Part shown: piece after piece, positions 8,585 through 17,029 of the stretch
Position numbering within the stretch: the stretch's first letter is position 1
Layout: each line of letters starts with the position of its first letter
Assembly: GCA_003153055.1 (NCBI GenBank)
Contig: PMBV01000094.1
Coordinates: 62,470 to 85,950 of the forward strand
Direction: 5' to 3'
DNA length: 23,481 nucleotides
DNA from: Myxococcales bacterium
Lineage (GTDB): Bacteria; Myxococcota; Myxococcia; Myxococcales; Myxococcaceae
Made by a program: the position numbers and the translations under genes
Notes under the pieces: model-generated
Seen by the model: the letters and a program-made list of their open reading frames with translations, nothing else
The model's database searches: none
Told to the model about the DNA's origin: nothing

Positions 8585-9549
8585 AGCACGTGCTGACCAT
8601 CGAAGCCTCTGACGCTGGGGCGCGCATCGATCGCCTCGTGGGCGCCCGGCTCTCGCTCTCGCGCGCCACGCTCAAGGACCTCTTCGAGCGCCACGCCGTC
8701 AGGGTCAACGGCCGCTGGGCCAAGAAGGGCGACACGCTCGAGCCCGGGCAGGTGGTGGAGGTCGATCACGAAGAGGTCCCGCGGGGCGTTCAGGCCGACG
8801 CCTCCCTGGGCCTCACCGTGCTGTACGAGGACGCAGCACTGGTCTTCGTCGACAAGCCGGCCAAAGTCCCCTGCCACCCCTTGAAGCCCAACGAGTCGGG
8901 CACCGTGGCCAACGCGCTGGTGGCCCGGTACCCGGAGCTGGCGACGGTGGGCGAAGATCCGCGCGAGGGAGGCCTCTGCCACCGGCTCGATGTGGAGACC
9001 TCCGGGGTTCTTCTGGCCGCTCGAACCCGCGAGGCCCATCAGGCCATGCGGGCTGCCTTCGGCCGCGAGGGAGAGATCGACAAGCGGTACCTGGCGCTGG
9101 TGTCGGGCCCCCTGTCTGACGAGGGCGTCATCGAGCTCGCCTTGGCGCACGCGGGGGACCACGTGCGACCGGCGACGTCGGCGGAAGGGCGTCCGGCGCG
9201 CTCCGAGTTCAAGGTGCTGGCCCGTCGAGGCCCGTTCGCGCTGGTGGAGGTGCACCTGGTGACTGGCGTCTTGCACCAGGTTCGCGCCCACCTCGCGGCC
9301 ATTGGCGCCCCCATCGTCGGCGATGCGCTGTACGACGGCCCACCCGAAGAGGGCCTCTCTCGTTTCTTCCTCCACGCCGCGTCCCTCGAGGTGACCCACC
9401 CCGAGACGAACCGGCGGCTCTCGGTGCGCTCGCCCTTGCCCGCGGAGCTTTCGGCGGTGCTCGATCGGCGAATCCCTGGGGCGAGCACGACGCCAGCGCT
9501 GGCCCTCAGGCCCGCGGTCGACCTTCCTCCTGCTCATCTTGTCTCGTAG
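8581..9549 (+). CDS. RluA-family rRNA/tRNA pseudouridine synthase
   Basis: This 322-residue enzyme isomerises specific uridines in structured RNA to pseudouridine. An S4-type RNA-binding domain occupies about residues 10-62 ([20 protein letters not shown], then VRVNG). The catalytic domain carries HRLDVETSG at 134-142 with Asp137 as the nucleophile, and [19 protein letters not shown] further on, as in RluA/RluC/RluD. The last 30 or so residues are an Ala/Pro-rich extension. The ATG at 8581 overlaps the kinase stop, so the two are co-translated; the extra open frame upstream to 8428 is the kinase's shadow. Which uridine it modifies cannot be told from sequence alone. Confidence 0.93.
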
Positions 9550-9564
9550 GTTGTGCCCTACGAG
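9543..9564. terminator. Hairpin embracing the stop codon of the pseudouridine synthase gene
   Basis: CTCGTAGG (9543-9550) and CCTACGAG (9557-9564) form a perfect 8-bp stem with the 6-base loop TTGTGC. The TAG stop (9547-9549) is inside the left arm. There is no T-run. The convergent gene arrangement supports a bidirectional transcript end. Confidence 0.5.
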
Positions 9565-9598
9565 GTGATCCGCGGGAACGGCGGCGTGGCGCGGCTGG

Positions 9599-9727
9599 TC
9601 AGGCTTCCACACGAGCCTGGTAGCGCGGCCCCGGGAGGGTGCGGGTGCCGAGGTAGGGGCGATCGGGGAAGCGAGCGACCGAGGCCTCGAGGAACTGGCC
9701 CAGGTTCGTCTTCTCGTGAGAGTCCAT
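9599..9727 (-). pseudogene. Fragment like the N-terminus of an AMP-binding acyl-CoA synthetase
   Basis: A 42-codon frame reads MDSHEKTNLGQFLEASVARF followed by PDRPYLGTRT. This closely resembles the opening of long-chain acyl-CoA ligases and related AMP-binding enzymes (xxLGxxLExSxxxxPDRPAL). After GTRTLPG the resemblance ends and a TGA stops the frame. The other minus-strand frames further down do not resume the family, and the region runs into the 3' end of the pseudouridine synthase gene. I read it as a truncated remnant, in line after the OPT transporter on the same strand. A short real ORF cannot be excluded. Confidence 0.4.
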
Positions 9728-9832
9728 GCCCGCCCCTGTCTGAGTTGGCCAACCCGTAGCGCCCCGGGACGGCGCTGTCACGCTCCAGCTGCGGGTTCGA
9801 CGCCGTCGCCCGAGGGGCTGAACCGGCCGCTC

Positions 9833-11617
9833 CTACCCAGCGCCGAGGAGCGCTCGGGCGAGCACGATGGTGATGCCCATCAGGCTCTCTCCGGCCACGA
9901 GCCCCGAGGCGATGGGCACCAGCCCAGCCTGGCCGAAGCGTGGCCACCGCCATCGAACGAGCGCCGCCACCGCGGCCCCGGCGAACATCGCCAGCGAGAA
10001 CGAGCCGGGGGTCACCATCGCAATGCCCAGCCCAGAGGGCGACGGAATCCATCGGCGCCAGCGAGCAGGCACGAACGTCTCCAGCACCGGCAACGCCACG
10101 CCCAGCGCACCACCCAGGGCGATGGCCCACCGCACCGTCGGAGACAGCCCCTCCAGCCCCTGGGTCAGCGCCCTGGAGACGCTGGCCCACACCAAGACCG
10201 AGGGCGCGGGGAACTCCTCCGAGCCCAGCACATCCGCCGTCGGGACGAGGAGGTTGAAAGCCGGCACCAGCACCAAGGCCCCGACGAGCAGGCCCAGGAG
10301 CTGGGCGTACACCTGCTGTCGCGGGCTCGCCCCCAAGAGGTGACCGGTCTTGAGGTCGCCGAGCAAGTCCGCCGCATGCAGCCCCACCCCAGTGGTGACG
10401 TTGGCGCTCATGATGTTGGCGGTGAGGTTGGCCGGGAGCACCACGCCGAACACCAGCTGGGTCAGCGGGCCCATGGCTTTGGTCGGGGTGACGTCGGTCT
10501 CGCCCGTCACCCGCGCGGCGATCACTCCCACCGCGAGAGAGAGCGGAATGGCCAGGAGCCCAGCCCACAGGGGAATGCCGAACAGGTGCCACATCAGCCC
10601 GACCATGATCGGCGAGAGCACTCCGAACCCCGCCACGAACCACCACAGCGGGGCCTCGTCGTCGCCCTCGCGTCCGTCACGGCGGCGGCGCTCCCAGGCA
10701 CCTCGGAGATCCATCACCCCCCGAGGGATGCCTCGCAGCTGGGGGAGGAACGACACGACGCCCGAGCTCGCCAGCAGCGCCGCTCCGGGCCAGAGGGTGA
10801 GCTCGACGATGCTCTTGAAGTCCACCGCGCGAATGGCGCCCGCCTCGACCAAGGCCGGGGCGAGCACCCCATAGGTGAGCACGGCACCCACGAGCATCGA
10901 CGAAGCGGTGCGGAGCCCCATGAGCGCCCCACCGCCCAACAACACGAGGCTCAGATCGAACCCGAGGGACCAGGCCGCCAGCGGGTGCCCGTGGAGCGCG
11001 AAGGGGAGCGTCAACCGCGCGGGAGGCCGGGGCCAGCGCCCGGGCCCCTCGCGCCACGCAGTGAAGAGCGCCGCCACCAGGCCAGCACCGAGCAGCCGCC
11101 GCGCGGTGGGTGAGCCGGAGCCCACGTGCAGGGAGCGGATCGTCTCGGCCGTGGCGACGCTCTGAGGAAAGGGCAGCTGTTCTCGATCGATGAGCTGGCG
11201 CTTCAGGGGAATGGCCGCGAAGACCCCCAGGGCCGCGATGACGGCGAACCACGCGAACATCGCGAACCCACCCGGGCGAGCGCCGGTCAACACCAGGAGC
11301 GCAGGGAGCGCCGCCATGTTGCCGCCACCGGTCATCCACGCCCCAGCCGAGGCCACCGTCGCCACCGCGTTGTTCTCCAGGGGCGAGAGCTCGCGAGTGA
11401 AGAGCCCCAGAAGGCGCAGCGCTCGAAACGCCACGAAGGCCACCACCGTCGCGGTGATGGTGACGCCGATGCTCCAGCCCGTCTTGAGGACGACGTAGAG
11501 GTTCGACAGGCACAGGCCGCCCCCGAGCAGGAGCCCCATCACCGCGGCCCGGAGGCTGAGCTGCGGAGCCCCCCGGTGCGCGCCCGACACCCGACGCGCC
11601 CCCGGGGCCTGGGTCAC
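9833..11617 (-). CDS. OPT-family oligopeptide / metal-chelate transporter
   Basis: This polytopic inner-membrane protein has 594 residues and at least a dozen hydrophobic helices, as expected for the oligopeptide transporter (OPT/YSL) family (COG1297-type). The N-terminal block NLYVVLKTGWSIGVTITATV matches the family's conserved first segments. ELSPLENNAVATVASAGAWM follows. In the middle lie a GETDVTPTKAMGPLTQLVFG segment and an ANIMSANVTTG segment, both typical of prokaryotic members. The family moves small peptides, glutathione conjugates or metal chelates, usually by proton coupling. The GTG start at 11617 overlaps the stop of the thioredoxin-reductase fusion (GTGA), making it the last intact gene of the peptide-modification operon. 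Whether it exports the modified peptide or imports a chelate is not visible in the sequence. Confidence 0.9.
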   Translation of the reverse strand: MTQAPGARRVSGAHRGAPQLSLRAAVMGLLLGGGLCLSNLYVVLKTGWSIGVTITATVVAFVAFRALRLLGLFTRELSPLENNAVATVASAGAWMTGGGNMAALPALLVLTGARPGGFAMFAWFAVIAALGVFAAIPLKRQLIDREQLPFPQSVATAETIRSLHVGSGSPTARRLLGAGLVAALFTAWREGPGRWPRPPARLTLPFALHGHPLAAWSLGFDLSLVLLGGGALMGLRTASSMLVGAVLTYGVLAPALVEAGAIRAVDFKSIVELTLWPGAALLASSGVVSFLPQLRGIPRGVMDLRGAWERRRRDGREGDDEAPLWWFVAGFGVLSPIMVGLMWHLFGIPLWAGLLAIPLSLAVGVIAARVTGETDVTPTKAMGPLTQLVFGVVLPANLTANIMSANVTTGVGLHAADLLGDLKTGHLLGASPRQQVYAQLLGLLVGALVLVPAFNLLVPTADVLGSEEFPAPSVLVWASVSRALTQGLEGLSPTVRWAIALGGALGVALPVLETFVPARWRRWIPSPSGLGIAMVTPGSFSLAMFAGAAVAALVRWRWPRFGQAGLVPIASGLVAGESLMGITIVLARALLGAG

Positions 11618-12903
11618 GCCGCCAGGTCTTTCGCCAACGCCATCGAGGCGATGGTGCCGTCGGACACCGCGGTCGTCATCTGCCGGTAGCGCTTCGACAC
11701 CACGTCACCCGCTGCGAAGACGCCGGGCACGCTGGTGCGCATGTCCTCGTCGACCACCACGTAGCCCCACTTGTCCAGCGCCAGCACGCCCTCGAGCCCA
11801 TCGAGGTTCGGCCGCATGCCGGCGAAGATGAAGACACCGTCGCAGTCCAGCGTGCGGAGGGTGCGGGTCTTGAGATCCTCCACCACCACCGCGTCGACGC
11901 CCTTGCCGCTCTTCGAGATGAACTCCCGTGGCTCGTGCTCGAAGACGAACTCGATCTTCTTCTCGGCGAAGGCCAGCTCCTGGGCGTGCTTGTTGGCCTG
12001 CAGGGTGCCGAACTGGTGCACGATGGTGATCTTCGCGGCGAACCGGGCGATGAAGAGCGACTCCTCGATGGCCGAGTTCCCGCCCCCGATGACGATGACG
12101 TGCTTGCCTTCGAAGTACTTGGCGTCGCACGTGGCACAGTACGAGATGCCCTTGCCCTTGAATTCCTGCTCGCCCTTGACGCCGATGGGGCGTGGAGAGG
12201 AGCCAGTGGCGACGATGACGCGCTGGGCGCGGATCGTCTCGAAGCCGTCCAGCTCGACGGTCTTCTCGCGGAGATCCACCCCCGTCACCTCGGCGGCGAG
12301 GCGGGGCACCACGCCCGCGGCCTTGGCGTGCTCCACCATGTAATGGGCCAGCATGTGTCCAGGCTGCGGCTGGGGGAAGCCGGGGAAGTTCGACACCTGG
12401 TGGGTGATGGCCAGGTTCCCCCCGCCCAGCCCGAGGTCGACCATCACGGTCTTGAGCTTGGCCTGGGCGCAGTAAATGCCCGCGGTGATGCCCGCCGGCC
12501 CTCCTCCCAGAATCAACACGTCGGCTTCGGTACGCACCGGCTTGGTGGTGGCGGTGATGGCCTGGGCACGCGTGGGCCCGACGAGGGCGTTCAACCCTTG
12601 AACCAGCGCCGACCGCTTGATGCCACCGGTCAGCCGGGTACCGACCTCTTTCCCTCCCTGAAAGAAGAGCACCGTGGGCGAGCCCCTCACCGAGAGGCTG
12701 TCGGCCAACGCGCGGTTCTCCTGGCGGAAGACCTTCACGAACGTGACGTCACGGCCGTACTGGGCGGCGAGCGCCTCGTACTTGGGAGCCAGCGCCTCGC
12801 ACGGCGGGCACTCGCTCGAATAGAAGTCGACGACCACGGCCTTCTCCGACGCGAGGACCTTGGAAAAGGCGCTCGCGTCGATCTCCTGAATCAACTCCGA
12901 CAT
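11614..12903 (-). CDS. Thioredoxin-thioredoxin reductase fusion (Trx at the N-terminus)
   Basis: The protein has 429 residues. Residues 1-108 form a thioredoxin domain with active site CPPC at 32-35 (instead of CGPC) and the cis-Pro segment RGSPTVLFF at 73-81. After a short linker, residues 125-429 form a low-molecular-weight thioredoxin reductase, with FAD-binding GGGPAG at 133-138, redox CATC at 256-259, second dinucleotide site GGGNSA at 273-278, and AAGD at 397-400. The best-known fusion (Mycobacterium leprae) has the opposite order. The HRRxxxR segment that binds the NADPH 2'-phosphate in typical reductases reads HQFGTLQAN here (296-304), so the electron donor may be NADH or something else. 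A GAGGTG Shine-Dalgarno precedes the ATG. It lies 27 bases after the radical SAM gene and overlaps the OPT gene, suggesting it keeps peptide or enzyme thiols reduced in this pathway. Confidence 0.93.
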   Translation of the reverse strand: MSELIQEIDASAFSKVLASEKAVVVDFYSSECPPCEALAPKYEALAAQYGRDVTFVKVFRQENRALADSLSVRGSPTVLFFQGGKEVGTRLTGGIKRSALVQGLNALVGPTRAQAITATTKPVRTEADVLILGGGPAGITAGIYCAQAKLKTVMVDLGLGGGNLAITHQVSNFPGFPQPQPGHMLAHYMVEHAKAAGVVPRLAAEVTGVDLREKTVELDGFETIRAQRVIVATGSSPRPIGVKGEQEFKGKGISYCATCDAKYFEGKHVIVIGGGNSAIEESLFIARFAAKITIVHQFGTLQANKHAQELAFAEKKIEFVFEHEPREFISKSGKGVDAVVVEDLKTRTLRTLDCDGVFIFAGMRPNLDGLEGVLALDKWGYVVVDEDMRTSVPGVFAAGDVVSKRYRQMTTAVSDGTIASMALAKDLAA

Positions 12904-12930
12904 ATTCTCACCTCATGTGACAACGACGAT

Positions 12931-14247
12931 TCACGACCCGAGCTGGTCTCGCCCGTAGACGGCGCAACCGAGGCCCAAGAGCTCTCTCACTGGCCTGCAA
13001 TCAGGAGCGCCGACTCGACCTGCCTGGTTCTTCGACACGGCCCCACAGCCGCCACCACAGGCGAGCTGGTTGGCACAACCTCGGCAGCCCTCCATCGACT
13101 GCACGTCACGGCGGCTCCATTCGCCGACCCGCTCGAGATCGAGCGAGCGCGTGGGAAAGAAGCTCCCGATGGCCTCGCCGGCCGCGCCCACGTTGGCGGT
13201 GCACGGGTAGATGGTGCCGGTGGCGTCGAAGGCAAACTCGGTCTTGGTCGCCGGGCACGAATCGAACAGCGGGTCGGGCAACCGGCCCTCGTCGAAGAGG
13301 AACCGGGCCACCGAGAAGGCGGGGCGATAGAAGCGGAGGATCTCGGGGTCCGCGTCGATGAGAGCCTTGAGATCCTCGTACAGCGACAACCGGGAGTAGA
13401 GCCGGGTGTTGTTGGTCTGGCAGTGGTGCAGCTCGTAGTTGCGCCCCAGCTGGGTCTTGAACTTCGGGTGGCCAGCCCAGCCCCGGTCGATGGCGAAGTG
13501 CGCCAGGCCAGCGAAGTCGGCGATGTTCTCCTTGTCGACGACCGTGCGGAGATTCACCGGGAGCCCGGCCTCGAGACAGGCGTCGACCCCTGCCACCACT
13601 CGATCGAACGTCGTGCCCCCGCCCTTGAGCCCGCGCCGGCGGTCATGAACCTCGCGGGTCCCGTCGAGCGTCACCTGCACCTCGCGGATGCGCCCCTTCG
13701 ACAGCAGGGGAACGAACCCCGCCAGGGTGTAGCCGTTGGTCACCACCGCGAGATCCAGCCCGCGAGCCGCGGTGCCTTCCACCATGCGCTCCACGGTGCG
13801 CCGGCTCCGTGGCGTCTCGAGCAGCGGCTCTCCACCGAAGAGCGTCACGTACTTTTTCCGGGTGGCGAAGGTGTCGTCGACGTAGCTGAAGAAGGCGTCG
13901 AGCACCGCGTCGGGGTCATGCCCCTTCGTGGGCGCGTACTCGTCTTGGAAACAGTACGAGCAGCCGAAGTTGCACGCGTACGAGGCCACGTAGAACAGCT
14001 GCACCTCGTCGGTCGCCCGCCCAGCGAGGAACGCCTGGTAGGCTGCCTGGTACCGACGCTGCTCTTCGTCTGGCTCGACGAGGTAGCCCTTCTGGGCCAG
14101 CTCGGCCTCGTTGAACAGCTCTCCCTTGGAGAGTCGTTCGCCGTCGGAAGCGGCCAGCAGATCGGCCTGGCCGCTCAACAGATTCACCAGAAGCCAGCGG
14201 TCACTGCCGGCGACCCGAGTGAGGAGATTGTGTTTCGATAGCTCCAT
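12931..14247 (-). CDS. Radical SAM/SPASM peptide-modifying enzyme
   Basis: This 438-residue enzyme has the radical SAM iron-sulfur motif CNFGCSYC (Cys92, 96, 99), then FGGEPLL at 137-143 and VTNGYTL at 169-175, as in the TIM-barrel core. The C-terminus is a full SPASM domain: C331-X12-G-X4-C349, then C388-X2-C391-X5-C397-X3-C401, then C417, with an extra C428. SPASM enzymes with this layout commonly mature ribosomal peptides by thioether, C-C or other crosslinks. The first 80 residues (LLVNLLSGQADLL and on) form an N-terminal region typical of such maturases. The open frame continues 40 codons upstream, but the ATG at 14247 has AGGAG six bases before it. It lies 53 bases after the Cys-rich peptide gene, its most likely substrate. 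It is not ArsS-like, because it carries the long SPASM extension. Confidence 0.92.
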   Translation of the reverse strand: MELSKHNLLTRVAGSDRWLLVNLLSGQADLLAASDGERLSKGELFNEAELAQKGYLVEPDEEQRRYQAAYQAFLAGRATDEVQLFYVASYACNFGCSYCFQDEYAPTKGHDPDAVLDAFFSYVDDTFATRKKYVTLFGGEPLLETPRSRRTVERMVEGTAARGLDLAVVTNGYTLAGFVPLLSKGRIREVQVTLDGTREVHDRRRGLKGGGTTFDRVVAGVDACLEAGLPVNLRTVVDKENIADFAGLAHFAIDRGWAGHPKFKTQLGRNYELHHCQTNNTRLYSRLSLYEDLKALIDADPEILRFYRPAFSVARFLFDEGRLPDPLFDSCPATKTEFAFDATGTIYPCTANVGAAGEAIGSFFPTRSLDLERVGEWSRRDVQSMEGCRGCANQLACGGGCGAVSKNQAGRVGAPDCRPVRELLGLGCAVYGRDQLGS

Positions 14248-14300
14248 GAAGGTCTCCTCGAATGGAGCCGCCGGACGTGCCGGTCGATTCCGACGGTGTA

Positions 14301-14405
14301 CTAGTCGTGGCAGCCGGCGACGTTCTTCGAAACCTTGGCGCAGCACTGGGCCACCACGGCACAGCAAGCGGGAGCCGACGTGTTCTTCTTGATGAGTGAT
14401 TGCAT
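14301..14405 (-). CDS. Cysteine-rich 34-residue peptide, candidate RiPP precursor
   Basis: This small gene reads from ATG at 14405 to TAG at 14301. The peptide starts MQSLIKKNTSAPA (a short basic, leader-like part). It continues CCAVVAQCCAKVSKNVAGCHD, where two vicinal Cys pairs separated by five residues and a last Cys give five Cys in 21 residues. A GAGGTGA Shine-Dalgarno lies seven bases upstream and contains the stop codon of the methyltransferase gene. The position directly before a radical SAM/SPASM gene is typical of precursor peptides. Vicinal dithiols are known tight ligands for trivalent arsenic and soft metals, which fits the ArsM-like neighbours. I do not recognise a named family. 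Alternatively it could be a small metallothionein-like chelator that works without modification. Confidence 0.78.
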   Translation of the reverse strand: MQSLIKKNTSAPACCAVVAQCCAKVSKNVAGCHD

Positions 14406-14412
14406 GTGTTGT

Positions 14413-14419
14413 TCACCTC
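14413..14419 (-). promoter_or_regulatory. Shine-Dalgarno of the peptide gene overlapping the upstream stop codon
   Basis: GAGGTGA on the minus strand serves two roles. Its TGA ends the methyltransferase gene, and the purine run sits seven bases before the peptide ATG. This implies terminating ribosomes could reinitiate on the peptide, tying its synthesis to the enzyme's. Confidence 0.6.
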
Positions 14420-15111
14420 GTCGCGTGGTTGTTCCGTGACCCCTCGAACGCGCCCGAGGGACGGATTGGTCGTTGACCAGAGAGTGTGAATTTCGCGAGG
14501 CGCGCGTGACCCCTGTCGTAGGGCTCGCTCTCGTCCGTCACCGCCACCTCGACGAGCCCAGCTCCAGCCACGTGCCCGAGGGAGGCCTCGCGAGGCTCCG
14601 CTCCAGCCCAGCACTCGGCCACCGCGACGGGGTCGTTCCGGTACTGCTCGGCGATGGGCTCCACCGCGAAGATGTCACTCACGATGAAGCGCCCACCAGG
14701 CTTGAGAACCCGGGCGATCTCCGCCCAGACGCGAGCCTTGTCGGTGGCGTGGTTCAGGGCGCAGTTCGACACCACCCAGTCGGCCACGGCATCGGGCAGC
14801 GCCAGCGCCTCGAGCGCGGAGTGAACGAAGGTGACGTTCTCGACACCCCCGGAGGCCGCCGCGGCCCGAGCCACCTCGAGCATCGCCGGGGTGAGGTCGA
14901 CTCCGTAGACGTGCCCCCCTGGGCCGACCAGACGGGCCAGCGCCAGGGCATCTCGACCTCGACCGCACCCGAGGTCGATGCACACCTGCCCCAGCTGGGC
15001 CTGGCACCCGCGGGCGGCCGAGCCACAGGAGAGGTTCGACTTGGTCTCGGCCAGAGCCGTGTACCGGTTCTGAATTGCCACGGCAGCCTGTCGTTCCACG
15101 TGTCGTTCCAC
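14413..15111 (-). CDS. ArsM-like class I SAM-dependent methyltransferase
   Basis: This is a Rossmann-fold methyltransferase of up to 232 residues. SAM motif I is CIDLGCGRGRDALALA at 44-59, with the acidic GVDLTPAML at 70-78. The later phrase WVVSNCALNHATDKARVW closely follows the arsenite methyltransferase pattern (SNCxxNxxxDK), with Cys117 matching one arsenic-binding Cys. Cys167 in AECWAGAE matches the CI(S/A)GA Cys. Cys29 and Cys36 lie N-terminal as in ArsM. It may methylate a metalloid or a peptide-bound one. It is the first gene of the minus-strand operon. The start is uncertain: GTGs at 15111, 15099 and 15081 are all in frame, with only weak Shine-Dalgarno elements; the first two lie in a direct repeat of GTGGAACGACA. 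Confidence 0.83.
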   Translation of the reverse strand: MERHVERQAAVAIQNRYTALAETKSNLSCGSAARGCQAQLGQVCIDLGCGRGRDALALARLVGPGGHVYGVDLTPAMLEVARAAAASGGVENVTFVHSALEALALPDAVADWVVSNCALNHATDKARVWAEIARVLKPGGRFIVSDIFAVEPIAEQYRNDPVAVAECWAGAEPREASLGHVAGAGLVEVAVTDESEPYDRGHARLAKFTLSGQRPIRPSGAFEGSRNNHATR

Positions 15112-15144
15112 GGAGTTTTCGAGCCGGAGGAGAGCAGATCGGAT

Positions 15145-15164
15145 TCATCGGACCTCCCCGATGA
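15145..15164. promoter_or_regulatory. Perfect dyad in the divergent promoter region of the peptide cluster
   Basis: TCATCGG (15145-15151) and CCGATGA (15158-15164) are exact inverted arms around ACCTCC. It sits in the roughly 95-bp gap between the two divergent operons, so one regulator could control both. A CATAAG at 15186-15191 could be a -10 for the plus-strand genes, but I see no matching -35, which would fit an activated promoter. No regulator gene is present in the cluster. Confidence 0.5.
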
Positions 15165-15206
15165 GTAGGGAACCTTTCACCCAAACATAAGTCTCAGAGG
15201 TGAGGT

Positions 15207-15839
15207 ATGCCCCCTCCAACGAGCCACCAGCGGTATGCCTGCGCCACCTGCGGCACCGCAGCGTCGTTCCGGGGCGATTGCTCCCGCATGCCCCAGGGGT
15301 GTCCGACCCTGACCCACGCCGAGCTCACGGGCGATGCGTCTCCCTACCTGGAACCTGGGAGGGCGGAGATCATGAAGGCCGCCGACGCCACGCCCTTCAC
15401 CCCTGACCGGCGGCTGAGGAACCGGGTCGAGGAGCTGGTGCACTTCGCCCAGGCCAGGGGACTCGACCGCATCGGCGTGGCCTTCTGCGTGTCGATGACC
15501 AAGGAGGCCCAGGCGCTGGGCCGCCTGCTGGAGGCTGAAGGGCTGGCCACCGAGCTCGTCTGCTGCCGGGTGGGCGCCATCGACTACGAGAAGGTCGGGC
15601 TGACCAAGGCGCACCCCGAAAAGTTCGCCGCTACGTGCAACCCCGTCGCCCAGGCCAAGCTGCTCAACGAGGCCCAGGTGAAGCTGGTGGTGCAGATGGG
15701 GTTGTGCCTGGGGCACGACCTCATTCTCCAGGAAGAGTCGCTCGCGCCCGTCACCACCCTGGTGGTCAAGGACCGGGCGTTCGATCATCATCCCATCACT
15801 GCCCTTCGCGGGGCGCGCGGCGAAGGAGTGACGAAGTGA
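15207..15839 (+). CDS. DUF1847 cysteine-rich protein, likely metal-binding
   Basis: This 210-residue protein opens with four cysteines in a metal-site-like layout (Cys12, Cys15, Cys25, Cys32: CATC, then GDC, then GCP). It contains further Cys at 94, 119-120 (a vicinal pair), 144 and 167, and conserved-looking blocks such as GLDRIGVAFCVSMTKEAQAL and LVVQMGLCLGHDLI. The pattern matches DUF1847, a family predicted to bind metal but with no established reaction. A GAGGTGAGG run precedes the ATG. The stop overlaps the GTG start of the next methyltransferase (GTGA), so the two are coupled. In this context it may bind or hand over a thiophilic metal(loid); that is inference. Confidence 0.83.
   Translation: MPPPTSHQRYACATCGTAASFRGDCSRMPQGCPTLTHAELTGDASPYLEPGRAEIMKAADATPFTPDRRLRNRVEELVHFAQARGLDRIGVAFCVSMTKEAQALGRLLEAEGLATELVCCRVGAIDYEKVGLTKAHPEKFAATCNPVAQAKLLNEAQVKLVVQMGLCLGHDLILQEESLAPVTTLVVKDRAFDHHPITALRGARGEGVTK
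15823..15828 (+). promoter_or_regulatory. Shine-Dalgarno deciding the start of the large ArsM-like gene
   Basis: AAGGAG lies seven bases before the GTG at 15836, inside the end of the DUF1847 gene. The frame is open to 15635, but the extra stretch is a shadow of DUF1847. Confidence 0.7.
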
Positions 15840-17029
15840 CCAGCTCAGCGACGACCGAGGTCCCGACCTTGCTGGAGGAGGCCATCGACCCCGAGGTCGC
15901 CGTACTCCGCGCCTACGCCGACGCCGCCACCGGGGCCCGCGGCCTGTGCTGTCCCGTGAGCTACGACCCCAAGCTCCTCGAGGCCATTCCCCCCGAGGTG
16001 CTGGAGCGCGACTACGGCTGCGGCGACCCGACCCCATGGCTCGAGGAGGGAGAGACGGTGCTCGACCTCGGCGCAGGCGGTGGCAAGGGCGTCTTCCTGG
16101 CGGCGCAGGTCGTCGGCGCGAAGGGCCGTGTCATCGGCGTCGACATGAATGACGAGATGCTGGCCCTGGCGCGGCGCTCGGCCCCGGTGTTCGCCCAGCG
16201 AGTGGGCTACGACAACGTCACCTTCCTCAAGGCCCGCATTCAGGATCTCGGGCTCGATCTCGAGAAGGTCGACGCGCAGCTGGCGCGGAGCCCCGTGCGC
16301 ACCTCGAGCGAGCTCGCCCACCTCGAGGCCGAGCTGGCCCGGCTGCGGCAGACCGAGCCTCTGGTGAGGGACGCCAGCGTCGACGTCGTGGTGAGCGACT
16401 GCGTGTTGAACCTGGTTCGGTCGGCGGACAAGGCAGCCCTCTTCCGGGAGATCCACCGGGTGTTGAAGAAGGGCGGGCGCGCGGTCATCTCGGACATCGT
16501 CAGCGACGAGGAGGTGCCTGGGCACCTGCAGGCCGACCCAGCGCTGTGGACGGGCTGCATCTCGGGCGCCATGCGCGAGCAGGCCTTCCTCCGAGCCTTC
16601 GAGGAGGCGGGCTTCTACGGCATCGAGCTGCTCACCCGAGACGCCAAGCCCTGGCGCACCGTGGAGGGCATCGAATTTCGCAGCGTCACCGTGAGGGCCT
16701 TCAAGGGCAAAGAGGGTCCCTGTTTCGATCACCACCAGGCCGTCATCTACCGAGGCCCGTTCTCGGAGGTGCGGGACGACGACGGCCATCGCCTGGTGCG
16801 GGGCGAGCGCGTGGCGGTGTGCGCCAAGACCTTCGGCCTTTACGCCCAGGCGCCCTACCGCTCGCACTTCGAGCTGGTCGAGCCCTTGGTGCCGGTCGCG
16901 CCCGAGACCGCCAAGCCTTTCCCCTGCGGCGCCGACATGCTGGTGCGGCACCCGAAACAGACCAAAGGTGAGGAGTACGCGCTCACCTCCGAGGCGGCCC
17001 CGGTGTGCTCGGGCCCTGGCTGCTGCTGA
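15836..17029 (+). CDS. arsM: ArsM-like arsenite methyltransferase with long C-terminal extension
   Basis: This 397-residue SAM-dependent methyltransferase has motif I VLDLGAGGGKGVFLAA at 75-90 and GVDMNDEMLALA at 101-112. All four arsenic-site cysteines known from ArsM have counterparts: the vicinal pair Cys38-39 in RGLCCPVSY, Cys62 in GCGDP, Cys189 in SDCVLNL, and Cys241 in GCISGAM. It should convert As(III) thiolates to methylated arsenicals, or act on a related metalloid. Two features are unusual. An insert at about 135-180 (DLEKVDAQLARSPVRTSSEL and on) interrupts the Rossmann core, and a C-terminal 130-residue extension carries Cys296, 329 and 364 and ends CSGPGCC. GTG start, good Shine-Dalgarno, coupled to DUF1847. 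Confidence 0.88.
   Translation: MTSSATTEVPTLLEEAIDPEVAVLRAYADAATGARGLCCPVSYDPKLLEAIPPEVLERDYGCGDPTPWLEEGETVLDLGAGGGKGVFLAAQVVGAKGRVIGVDMNDEMLALARRSAPVFAQRVGYDNVTFLKARIQDLGLDLEKVDAQLARSPVRTSSELAHLEAELARLRQTEPLVRDASVDVVVSDCVLNLVRSADKAALFREIHRVLKKGGRAVISDIVSDEEVPGHLQADPALWTGCISGAMREQAFLRAFEEAGFYGIELLTRDAKPWRTVEGIEFRSVTVRAFKGKEGPCFDHHQAVIYRGPFSEVRDDDGHRLVRGERVAVCAKTFGLYAQAPYRSHFELVEPLVPVAPETAKPFPCGADMLVRHPKQTKGEEYALTSEAAPVCSGPGCC

What the first reader, a model, noticed from the sequence alone, without database searches (positions are those of the whole stretch)
9833..17029. Putative metalloid-linked RiPP system: peptide, radical SAM, two ArsM-like enzymes, Trx-TrxR, OPT transporter, DUF1847
Two divergent, tightly coupled operons combine a vicinal-dithiol peptide, a maturase, two methyltransferases with arsenic-type cysteines, a dedicated thiol-reducing fusion, a Cys-rich DUF1847 protein and a peptide/metal-chelate transporter. 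No arsR, arsB/acr3 or arsC is present, so this is not an ordinary arsenic resistance operon. A peptide that carries methylated or bound arsenic (or another soft element such as Se, Sb or Hg) would use every part.
Basis: partly seen in the sequence, partly recalled or inferred. Interest (0 to 1): 0.93.

Follow-up and report, generated by a model that had tools for sequence, protein, structure and literature searches.

The report
Conserved peptide with arsenic-type methyltransferase partner
A tiny cysteine-rich peptide is kept almost unchanged in several bacterial groups together with the same small set of enzymes, one of them built like an arsenic-methylating enzyme, which points to an undescribed peptide system that may handle arsenic.

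Summary
The conserved core is a 34-aa peptide, a radical SAM/SPASM maturase, a small ArsM-lineage methyltransferase (MT1) and a thioredoxin/thioredoxin reductase pair. The peptide's end, AQCCAKxSxxxxGCHD, is invariant at 11 of 16 positions in the 33 loci (of 36) where it was found, from Myxococcota, Bacteroidetes and Fibrobacteres records. In 195 Myxococcota genomes the maturase occurs in 24, the peptide in 23 of those and no other, MT1 in all 24 plus one. OPT (7 of 36 loci), MT2 (3) and DUF1847 (3 plus a fragment) are lineage additions. MT1 keeps the three cysteines that bind As(III) in ArsM (31 of 31 sequences); 15 of 15 ArsM-like and 0 of 14 other methyltransferase controls have all three. 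MT2 relatives sit beside the arsenosugar enzyme ArsS in 3 of 12 loci. The RiPP system is well supported; the arsenic link is plausible but indirect; arsenic on the peptide is untested. No NCBIfam cut-off shown is reached by maturase, peptide or MT1, and my paper searches found no description. Named Anaeromyxobacter species appear to carry it.

The parts
14301..14405 (-). precursor peptide, 34 aa; start MxSLIKK, C-terminal core AQCCAKxSxxxxGCHD ending at the stop codon
   Evidence: found in 33 of 36 loci, 11 invariant core positions in 33 of 33
12931..14247 (-). radical SAM/SPASM peptide maturase, 438 aa
   Evidence: PF04055; CX3CX2C C92/C96/C99 and SPASM cysteines C331, C349, C388, C391, C397, C401, C417, each 16 of 16; best solved match 5wgg
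14413..15111 (-). MT1: short ArsM-lineage SAM methyltransferase with the As(III)-binding triad C29, C117, C167
   Evidence: found in all 24 maturase-bearing genomes of the Myxococcota set
11614..12903 (-). thioredoxin (active site ECPPC, C32/C35) fused to thioredoxin reductase (CATC, C256/C259)
9833..11617 (-). OPT-family transporter; 4-base overlap with the Trx-TrxR gene; lineage-specific
   Evidence: TIGR00728 221.8 bits over cut-off 128.35; 7 of 36 loci, one of them cut by a contig end
15207..15839 (+). DUF1847 protein; seven cysteines invariant in the five sequences aligned (window included); accessory
   Evidence: PF08901; adjacent in 3 of 36 loci plus a fragment in L004
15836..17029 (+). 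MT2: long ArsM-type methyltransferase with ArsM-type cysteines (C38/C39, C62, C189, C241) and a C-terminal GCC; accessory
   Evidence: adjacent in 3 of 36 loci; relatives in 13 of 195 genomes of the Myxococcota set
15112..15206 (.). divergent promoter region between the two operons, with a 7-6-7 palindrome at 15145-15164

Best explanation
It is a RiPP-type system that makes one conserved thiol peptide and uses it on a soft metalloid, most likely arsenic. The short leader (MxSLIxK) is recognised by the radical SAM/SPASM enzyme, which modifies the C-terminal core AQCCAKxSxxxxGCHD, most likely by a thioether or similar cross-link, as its nearest solved relative does (inferred). The remaining cysteines bind As(III) (inferred). 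MT1, which keeps ArsM's As(III)-binding triad but lacks ArsM's C-terminal part, methylates the metalloid on, or handed over by, the peptide (inferred). The dedicated CPPC thioredoxin and its reductase keep peptide and MT1 thiols reduced and help release the product (inferred). In the window's lineage an OPT transporter moves the product or the free peptide, and MT2 with DUF1847 is an added arsenic-linked module (inferred). Shown: gene content, invariance of the core, tight co-occurrence of peptide, maturase and MT1, and triad conservation. Not shown: any chemistry.
For: In 195 genomes, peptide and maturase co-occur in 23, maturase alone in 1, peptide alone in 0, neither in 171 (Fisher p 5e-29, not corrected for kinship); the same 5 of 296 Bacteroidota genomes hold both. 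MT1 in 24 of 24 maturase genomes. Gene order differs between and within clades (MT1-peptide-rSAM-TrxTrxR in the window; MT1-rSAM with peptide-Trx-TrxR apart in others), so the link is not just one inherited block. MT1 C29/C117/C167 invariant in 31 of 31 and 18 of 18, aligning with CmArsM C72/C174/C224; those residues bind As(III), and all three are needed for its first methylation (PMC3877260, passages read). Control from 20 genomes without the maturase: all three present in 15 of 15 ArsM-like and 0 of 14 other methyltransferases (one further ArsM-like row with an in-frame TGA, L128, left out there). Linked thioredoxin has CPPC in 25 and CAPC in 6 of 31 loci. MT2 relatives lie beside ArsS in 3 of 12 loci.
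Against: No ars regulator, pump or reductase in the window scan. MT1 is below the arsenite methyltransferase cut-off (167.5 of 263 bits), and an invariant residue close to C117 differs from the aligned ArsMs (SNCxxNH against SNCxxNL). Cysteines that bind arsenic in ArsM could serve another metal or a thiol substrate here. MT2 is adjacent in only 3 of 36 loci, and its genome-level association with the maturase (11 of 13 genomes) is open to kinship. In the Anaeromyxobacter-type clade the recurrent neighbours that I annotated are sulfur/redox-type or unknown (sulfide:quinone-reductase-like, rhodanese, DUF5714, DUF6125), not arsenic genes. One genome (G055) has maturase and MT1 but no detected peptide, and one (G199) has a solitary MT1.
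Confidence: 0.42

Rival explanations
1. Same peptide system, but no metalloid. MT1 methylates the peptide itself (a Cys thiol or the penultimate His) and the product is a redox-active thiol cofactor or metal-binding peptide (copper, zinc, mercury) that the dedicated thioredoxin pair recycles.
For: In the Anaeromyxobacter-type clade the peptide gene lies directly before Trx and TrxR in many loci; the core ends in CHD, a possible metal or cross-link site; sulfur/redox neighbours in that clade; the Trx active site is specialised.
Against: Does not explain why all three ArsM As-binding cysteines are invariant in MT1, a set absent from 14 of 14 non-ArsM controls.
Confidence: 0.3
2. The peptide is only a scaffold. 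The conserved C-terminal GCHD is modified, cut off and becomes a small cofactor (as PQQ or mycofactocin come from peptides; recalled), with MT1 as a tailoring methyltransferase and OPT as a transporter of the small product.
For: Near-invariance of the core at the extreme C-terminus across phyla is what a cofactor precursor would show; OPT fits small peptides.
Against: None of the 14 protein clusters present in four or more loci looks like a protease (labels, two judged by eye); invariance runs from A1 to D16, not only at the end; it leaves no clear task for Trx-TrxR.
Confidence: 0.13
3. Ordinary arsenic detoxification: a small metallothionein-like chelating peptide and arsenite methyltransferases; the radical SAM enzyme does not act on the peptide.
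For: MT2 is ArsM-like and its relatives sit with ArsS or a MIP channel in 6 of 12 loci.
Against: Peptide and maturase go together in 23 of 24 genomes; MT2 relatives mostly lie elsewhere in the genome; no ars genes in the window scan.
Confidence: 0.08
4. A secreted antimicrobial or signalling RiPP.
For: Radical SAM RiPP maturases often make such products (recalled).
Against: The core is conserved rather than diversified, 21 of 23 peptide-bearing genomes show a single match, and apart from OPT no transporter is among the clusters present in four or more loci.
Confidence: 0.03

Closest known systems
CteB/SCIFF, PapB and TIGR04463-type radical SAM/SPASM maturases of Cys-rich peptides
   Same: radical SAM plus seven-cysteine SPASM, N-terminal three strands then three helices in the model (the order of an RRE, recalled), small Cys-rich precursor next door; best solved match 5wgg, titled as a thioether-forming sactipeptide enzyme (that 5wgg is CteB is recalled)
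   Different: far below the family cut-offs (TIGR04463 117.7 of 525, PapB 92.7 of 340, SCIFF 72.3 of 425); precursor core unlike any that I recall; ArsM-like enzyme and Trx-TrxR in the core
Arsenite methyltransferase ArsM
   Same: MT1 and MT2 are homologues; MT1 has the C72/C174/C224 equivalents, MT2 also an N-terminal Cys pair
   Different: MT1 has 232 residues against 321-387 in the solved ArsM chains, lacks the N-terminal ArsM cysteine and C-terminal part, and goes with a peptide and its maturase
Arsinothricin genes arsQML and arsenosugar pair ArsM-ArsS
   Same: an ArsM-type enzyme paired with a radical SAM enzyme (PMC8552651, passages read; TIGR04167)
   Different: those radical SAM enzymes act on arsenic with small molecules; here the radical SAM enzyme is of SPASM peptide-maturase type and a ribosomal peptide is present; neither ArsL nor ArsS was found in the window scan
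Selenoprotein families of ArsM-like, MbdU and MduS type
   Same: related methyltransferase families, and DUF5714 (MbdU-like) next to some of these loci; the review PMC13188914 (passages read) says most of the metal-transport selenoproteins around them are implicated in metal(loid) resistance
   Different: the 33 peptide genes have Cys codons, no TGA, at the core cysteines; DUF5714 in only 6 of 36 loci

Membership tests
Radical SAM/SPASM RiPP maturase | CX3CX2C radical SAM motif | tested here: met
   C92, C96, C99 in 16 of 16 aligned
Radical SAM/SPASM RiPP maturase | seven-cysteine SPASM motif (motif recalled) | tested here: met
   C331-X12-G-X4-C349, C388-X2-C391-X5-C397-X3-C401, C417, each Cys 16 of 16
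Radical SAM/SPASM RiPP maturase | cognate precursor peptide in the neighbourhood | tested here: met
   33 of 36 loci; for 2 of the 3 misses the genome holds the peptide on another contig; the third, L045, has none detected
Radical SAM/SPASM RiPP maturase | N-terminal RiPP recognition element | tested here: inconclusive
   model shows three strands then three helices in residues 7-77; no RRE-specific search was run
Sactipeptide/ranthipeptide | thioether cross-links formed on the peptide | not testable with these tools
   needs mass spectrometry
Sactipeptide/ranthipeptide | score over the NCBIfam cut-off of a described maturase family | tested here: not met
   best TIGR04463, 117.7 of 525; none of the 25 families shown (of 67) is over its cut-off
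ArsM arsenite methyltransferase (MT1) | As(III)-binding cysteine triad | tested here: met
   31 of 31, 18 of 18
ArsM arsenite methyltransferase (MT1) | score over PRK11873 cut-off; full-length ArsM architecture | tested here: not met
   167.5 of 263 bits; 232 aa against 321-387 aa in solved ArsM chains
Arsinothricin-type ArsM NF040538 (MT2) | score over cut-off | tested here: not met
   333.2 of 500
ars resistance operon | arsR, arsB/acr3 or arsC present | tested here: not met
   none among the seven cluster proteins and 16 further window ORFs scanned
Thioredoxin/thioredoxin reductase | Trx CxxC and TrxR CATC active sites | tested here: met
   ECPPC and CATC; the score is below the TIGR01292 cut-off, 306.3 of 343.45

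The most novel reading that the evidence does not exclude
An arseno-RiPP: the ribosomal peptide chelates As(III) through its three invariant core cysteines, the radical SAM/SPASM enzyme fixes it to the peptide (through a cross-link or even a carbon-arsenic bond), and MT1 methylates the peptide-held arsenic. This would be a third radical SAM plus ArsM pairing after ArsL-ArsM and ArsS-ArsM, and the first on a ribosomal peptide known to me.
Probability: 0.12. Interest if true: 0.95.

Novelty: new variant of a known kind. Interest (0 to 1): 0.74.

Why it matters
A peptide whose last 16 residues are nearly fixed in records from at least three phyla, and which travels with one maturase and one ArsM-lineage methyltransferase, must make a defined molecule with a job worth keeping. 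If the metalloid reading is right, it joins RiPP chemistry to arsenic biochemistry and adds a possible source of organoarsenicals. If it is wrong, it still is an undescribed thiol-peptide system with its own reductase. Either way the question is directly testable, since named Anaeromyxobacter species appear to carry the whole core.

Tried and rejected
Seven-gene unit: rejected by the neighbourhood counts. Selenocysteine variants of the peptide: looked for in seven stretches from five genomes, none found. Anti-phage defence: PADLOC matches are generic radical SAM and methyltransferase domains. Rfam: no match at gathering score. DUF1847 fold: model too weak (mean pLDDT 63) and only one match under E 0.001, so no claim. 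A true MT1-maturase fusion (P0077, 724 aa): the stretch between the two looks to me like the peptide gene read out of frame, so probably a frameshifted contig; not used. The first ORF caller gave spurious GC-rich ORFs and was replaced; the replacement still missed the maturase in L039 and MT1 in L003, which tblastn shows. Papers: none for DUF1847, none for the four terms, none for the four; 49 papers hold one of the terms and the 20 listed all hit the string ohkg, none the peptide strings; some searches were seen as listings, with the start of abstracts. Haft and Tolstoy 2025, Haft and Gwadz 2023 and Lewis 2021 were not held and are unread. A systematic scan for ars genes in all 36 neighbourhoods was not done. 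On checking, the triad control proved weak, since most distant matches did not reach the outer two columns; I repeated it on longer reading frames, which gave 15 of 15 and 0 of 14, so the odds stay.
Full report
What is there. The window holds two divergent operons at the stated place. Minus strand: MT1 (14413-15111), a 34-residue peptide (14301-14405), a radical SAM/SPASM protein (12931-14247), a thioredoxin-thioredoxin reductase fusion (11614-12903) and an OPT transporter (9833-11617, 4-base overlap). Plus strand: DUF1847 (15207-15839) and MT2 (15836-17029, 4-base overlap). Of 16 further window ORFs scanned, those with matches are housekeeping or unrelated genes; none is an ars gene. The window's own genome is not held; its nearest titled relatives by maturase are Myxococcota MAGs at 65-71% identity, while unnamed metagenome proteins reach 89%.

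The peptide is real and conserved. One scan of GTDB genomes gave nine loci with a maturase relative, one titled Bacteroidetes and one Fibrobacteres; all nine carry MT1 and the peptide beside it. A profile search found the maturase in 24 of 195 genomes of the phylum of G003 (locus L003, titled Archangium; Myxococcota) and 5 of 296 of the phylum of G008 (L008, titled Bacteroidetes). With larger regions fetched, I compared 36 distinct loci: the window, nine from the scan and 26 from these genomes. The peptide was found in 33 of 36; the misses are L045, L032 and L059, and the genomes of the last two hold the peptide on another contig. The last 16 residues follow AQCCAKxSxxxxGCHD: 11 positions are invariant in 33 of 33, while the DNA has 31 different versions and locus GC runs from 35 to 76%, so the constraint is on the protein. 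A second, upstream CC pair, present in the window, is absent in the Bacteroidota and Fibrobacteres forms aligned.

Independent co-occurrence. Searching the same genomes with the peptide profile alone gave 23 of 195, all among the 24 with the maturase; only G055 has a maturase and no peptide. Fisher p is 5e-29, without correction for kinship. In Bacteroidota the five strong peptide matches are the same five genomes; two more at E about 0.007 are probably chance. MT1 at 277 bits or more is in 25 of 195 genomes: all 24 plus G199, which has a solitary MT1; the next best methyltransferase scores 194 bits. Only the best first-look candidates per genome were scored in these searches, so absences are not strict. 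Gene order varies: MT1-peptide-rSAM-TrxTrxR in the window's clade and most Bacteroidota loci, and MT1-rSAM with a separate peptide-Trx-TrxR group in much of the Anaeromyxobacter-type clade. The maturase there is 40-46% identical to the window's, less than the Bacteroidetes one of L008 at 53%.

What is core and what is not. Core: peptide, maturase, MT1, Trx and TrxR. TrxR was called in 30 of 36 loci; five of the six misses (L009, L032, L042, L048, L059) lie at contig ends, and L053 has thioredoxin but no TrxR in the 13 kb held. OPT is in 7 of 36 (one cut by a contig end), MT2 adjacent in 3 of 36 (window, L001, L003), DUF1847 adjacent in 3 of 36 (window, L003, L060) with a fragment in L004. Other recurrent neighbours are a 61-residue protein (13), a flavoprotein distantly like sulfide:quinone reductase (8), DUF5714 (6), rhodanese (4) and DUF6125 (3), labelled from one or two representatives each.

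The maturase. All radical SAM and SPASM cysteines are invariant in 16 of 16 aligned sequences, as is C276. The AlphaFold model is good (mean pLDDT 84.9), with residues 7-77 as three strands and three helices, the order of a RiPP recognition element (recalled); this was not tested with an RRE profile. The best solved match is 5wgg, a thioether-forming peptide maturase (TM 0.69). None of the 25 NCBIfam families shown is reached (best TIGR04463, 117.7 of 525 bits).

MT1 and arsenic. MT1's closest solved relatives are arsenite methyltransferases (E 6e-26). Its C29, C117 and C167 align with CmArsM C72, C174 and C224 and are invariant in 31 of 31 MT1s (numbering there is 4 lower) and 18 of 18. In CmArsM these three bind As(III), and all three are needed for the first methylation (PMC3877260, passages read). 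As a control I searched 20 genomes without the maturase and examined the 30 loci returned: 16 ArsM-like rows (E 1e-26 or better; classed by score, not by annotation) and 14 more distant methyltransferases. On longer reading frames all three cysteines are present in 15 of 15 ArsM-like sequences and 0 of 14 others; the sixteenth ArsM-like row, L128, has an in-frame TGA at the third column and Gly at the second and was left out. So the triad marks the ArsM lineage, and MT1 has kept it. MT1 is, however, below the arsenite methyltransferase cut-off (167.5 of 263) and shorter than ArsM.

MT2 and arsenic. MT2 relatives occur in 13 of 195 genomes, 11 of them with the maturase, mostly far from it (p 6e-10, uncorrected for kinship). 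DUF1847 is in 17 of 195, 11 with the maturase. I examined 12 of the 14 MT2 places: an ArsS-like radical SAM gene is next door in 3 (two confirmed over the TIGR04167 cut-off, 420.9 and 418.7 of 300 bits; the third by alignment only) and a MIP channel gene in 3 (two scanned, below the MIP subfamily cut-off). This supports arsenic for MT2, which is not core.

Redox partner. The linked thioredoxin has CPPC in 25 and CAPC in 6 of the 31 loci where it was read; a second thioredoxin with GCGPC occurs in four loci. That the usual site is CGPC, and that ArsM-type enzymes are recycled by thioredoxin, are recalled.

Mechanism and judgement. I commit to a RiPP system whose peptide works with MT1 on a soft metalloid, with Trx-TrxR as reductant (0.42 for the whole chain; about 0.85 for the RiPP part alone). 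The strongest rival is the same system without metalloid (0.30).

Hosts and literature. Sources name Anaeromyxobacter oryzae, A. oryzisoli and Anaeromyxobacter sp. SG17 for maturase relatives; equal contig lengths suggest that loci L057 and L050, which carry the full core, are the first two. That these are cultured is recalled. Paper searches gave no description of this system among what they listed; three closely relevant selenoprotein and RiPP papers were not held.

Noticed in passing
L128 (genome G030), also G041:C1:2445037, G044:C1:3720450, G018:C43:182493: ArsM-like matches with an in-frame TGA; in L128 the TGA falls at the Cys224 column, which fits the UxxG selenoprotein form of arsenite methyltransferase listed in PMC13188914. 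The other three were not looked at in detail.
   Followed up: partly
L054:10648-10833 and 12 other loci: A 61-residue protein with recurring cysteines and no Pfam or NCBIfam match occurs in 13 of 36 loci, directly next to the peptide gene in nine of them.
   Followed up: partly
L004:8045-9058, L043:8555-9301 and four other loci: DUF5714, related to the double selenoprotein MbdU, directly beside the maturase or MT1 in 6 of 36 loci.
   Followed up: partly
window 15145-15164: Palindrome TCATCGG-N6-CCGATGA in the divergent promoter, a possible operator.
   Followed up: no
L148 (genome G199) 9369-10022: A solitary MT1 without peptide or maturase in the 20 kb held around it.
   Followed up: partly
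L114:3790-4404: DUF1847 away from the peptide cluster, beside a NifX-like protein and a protein resembling DUF6125.
   Followed up: no
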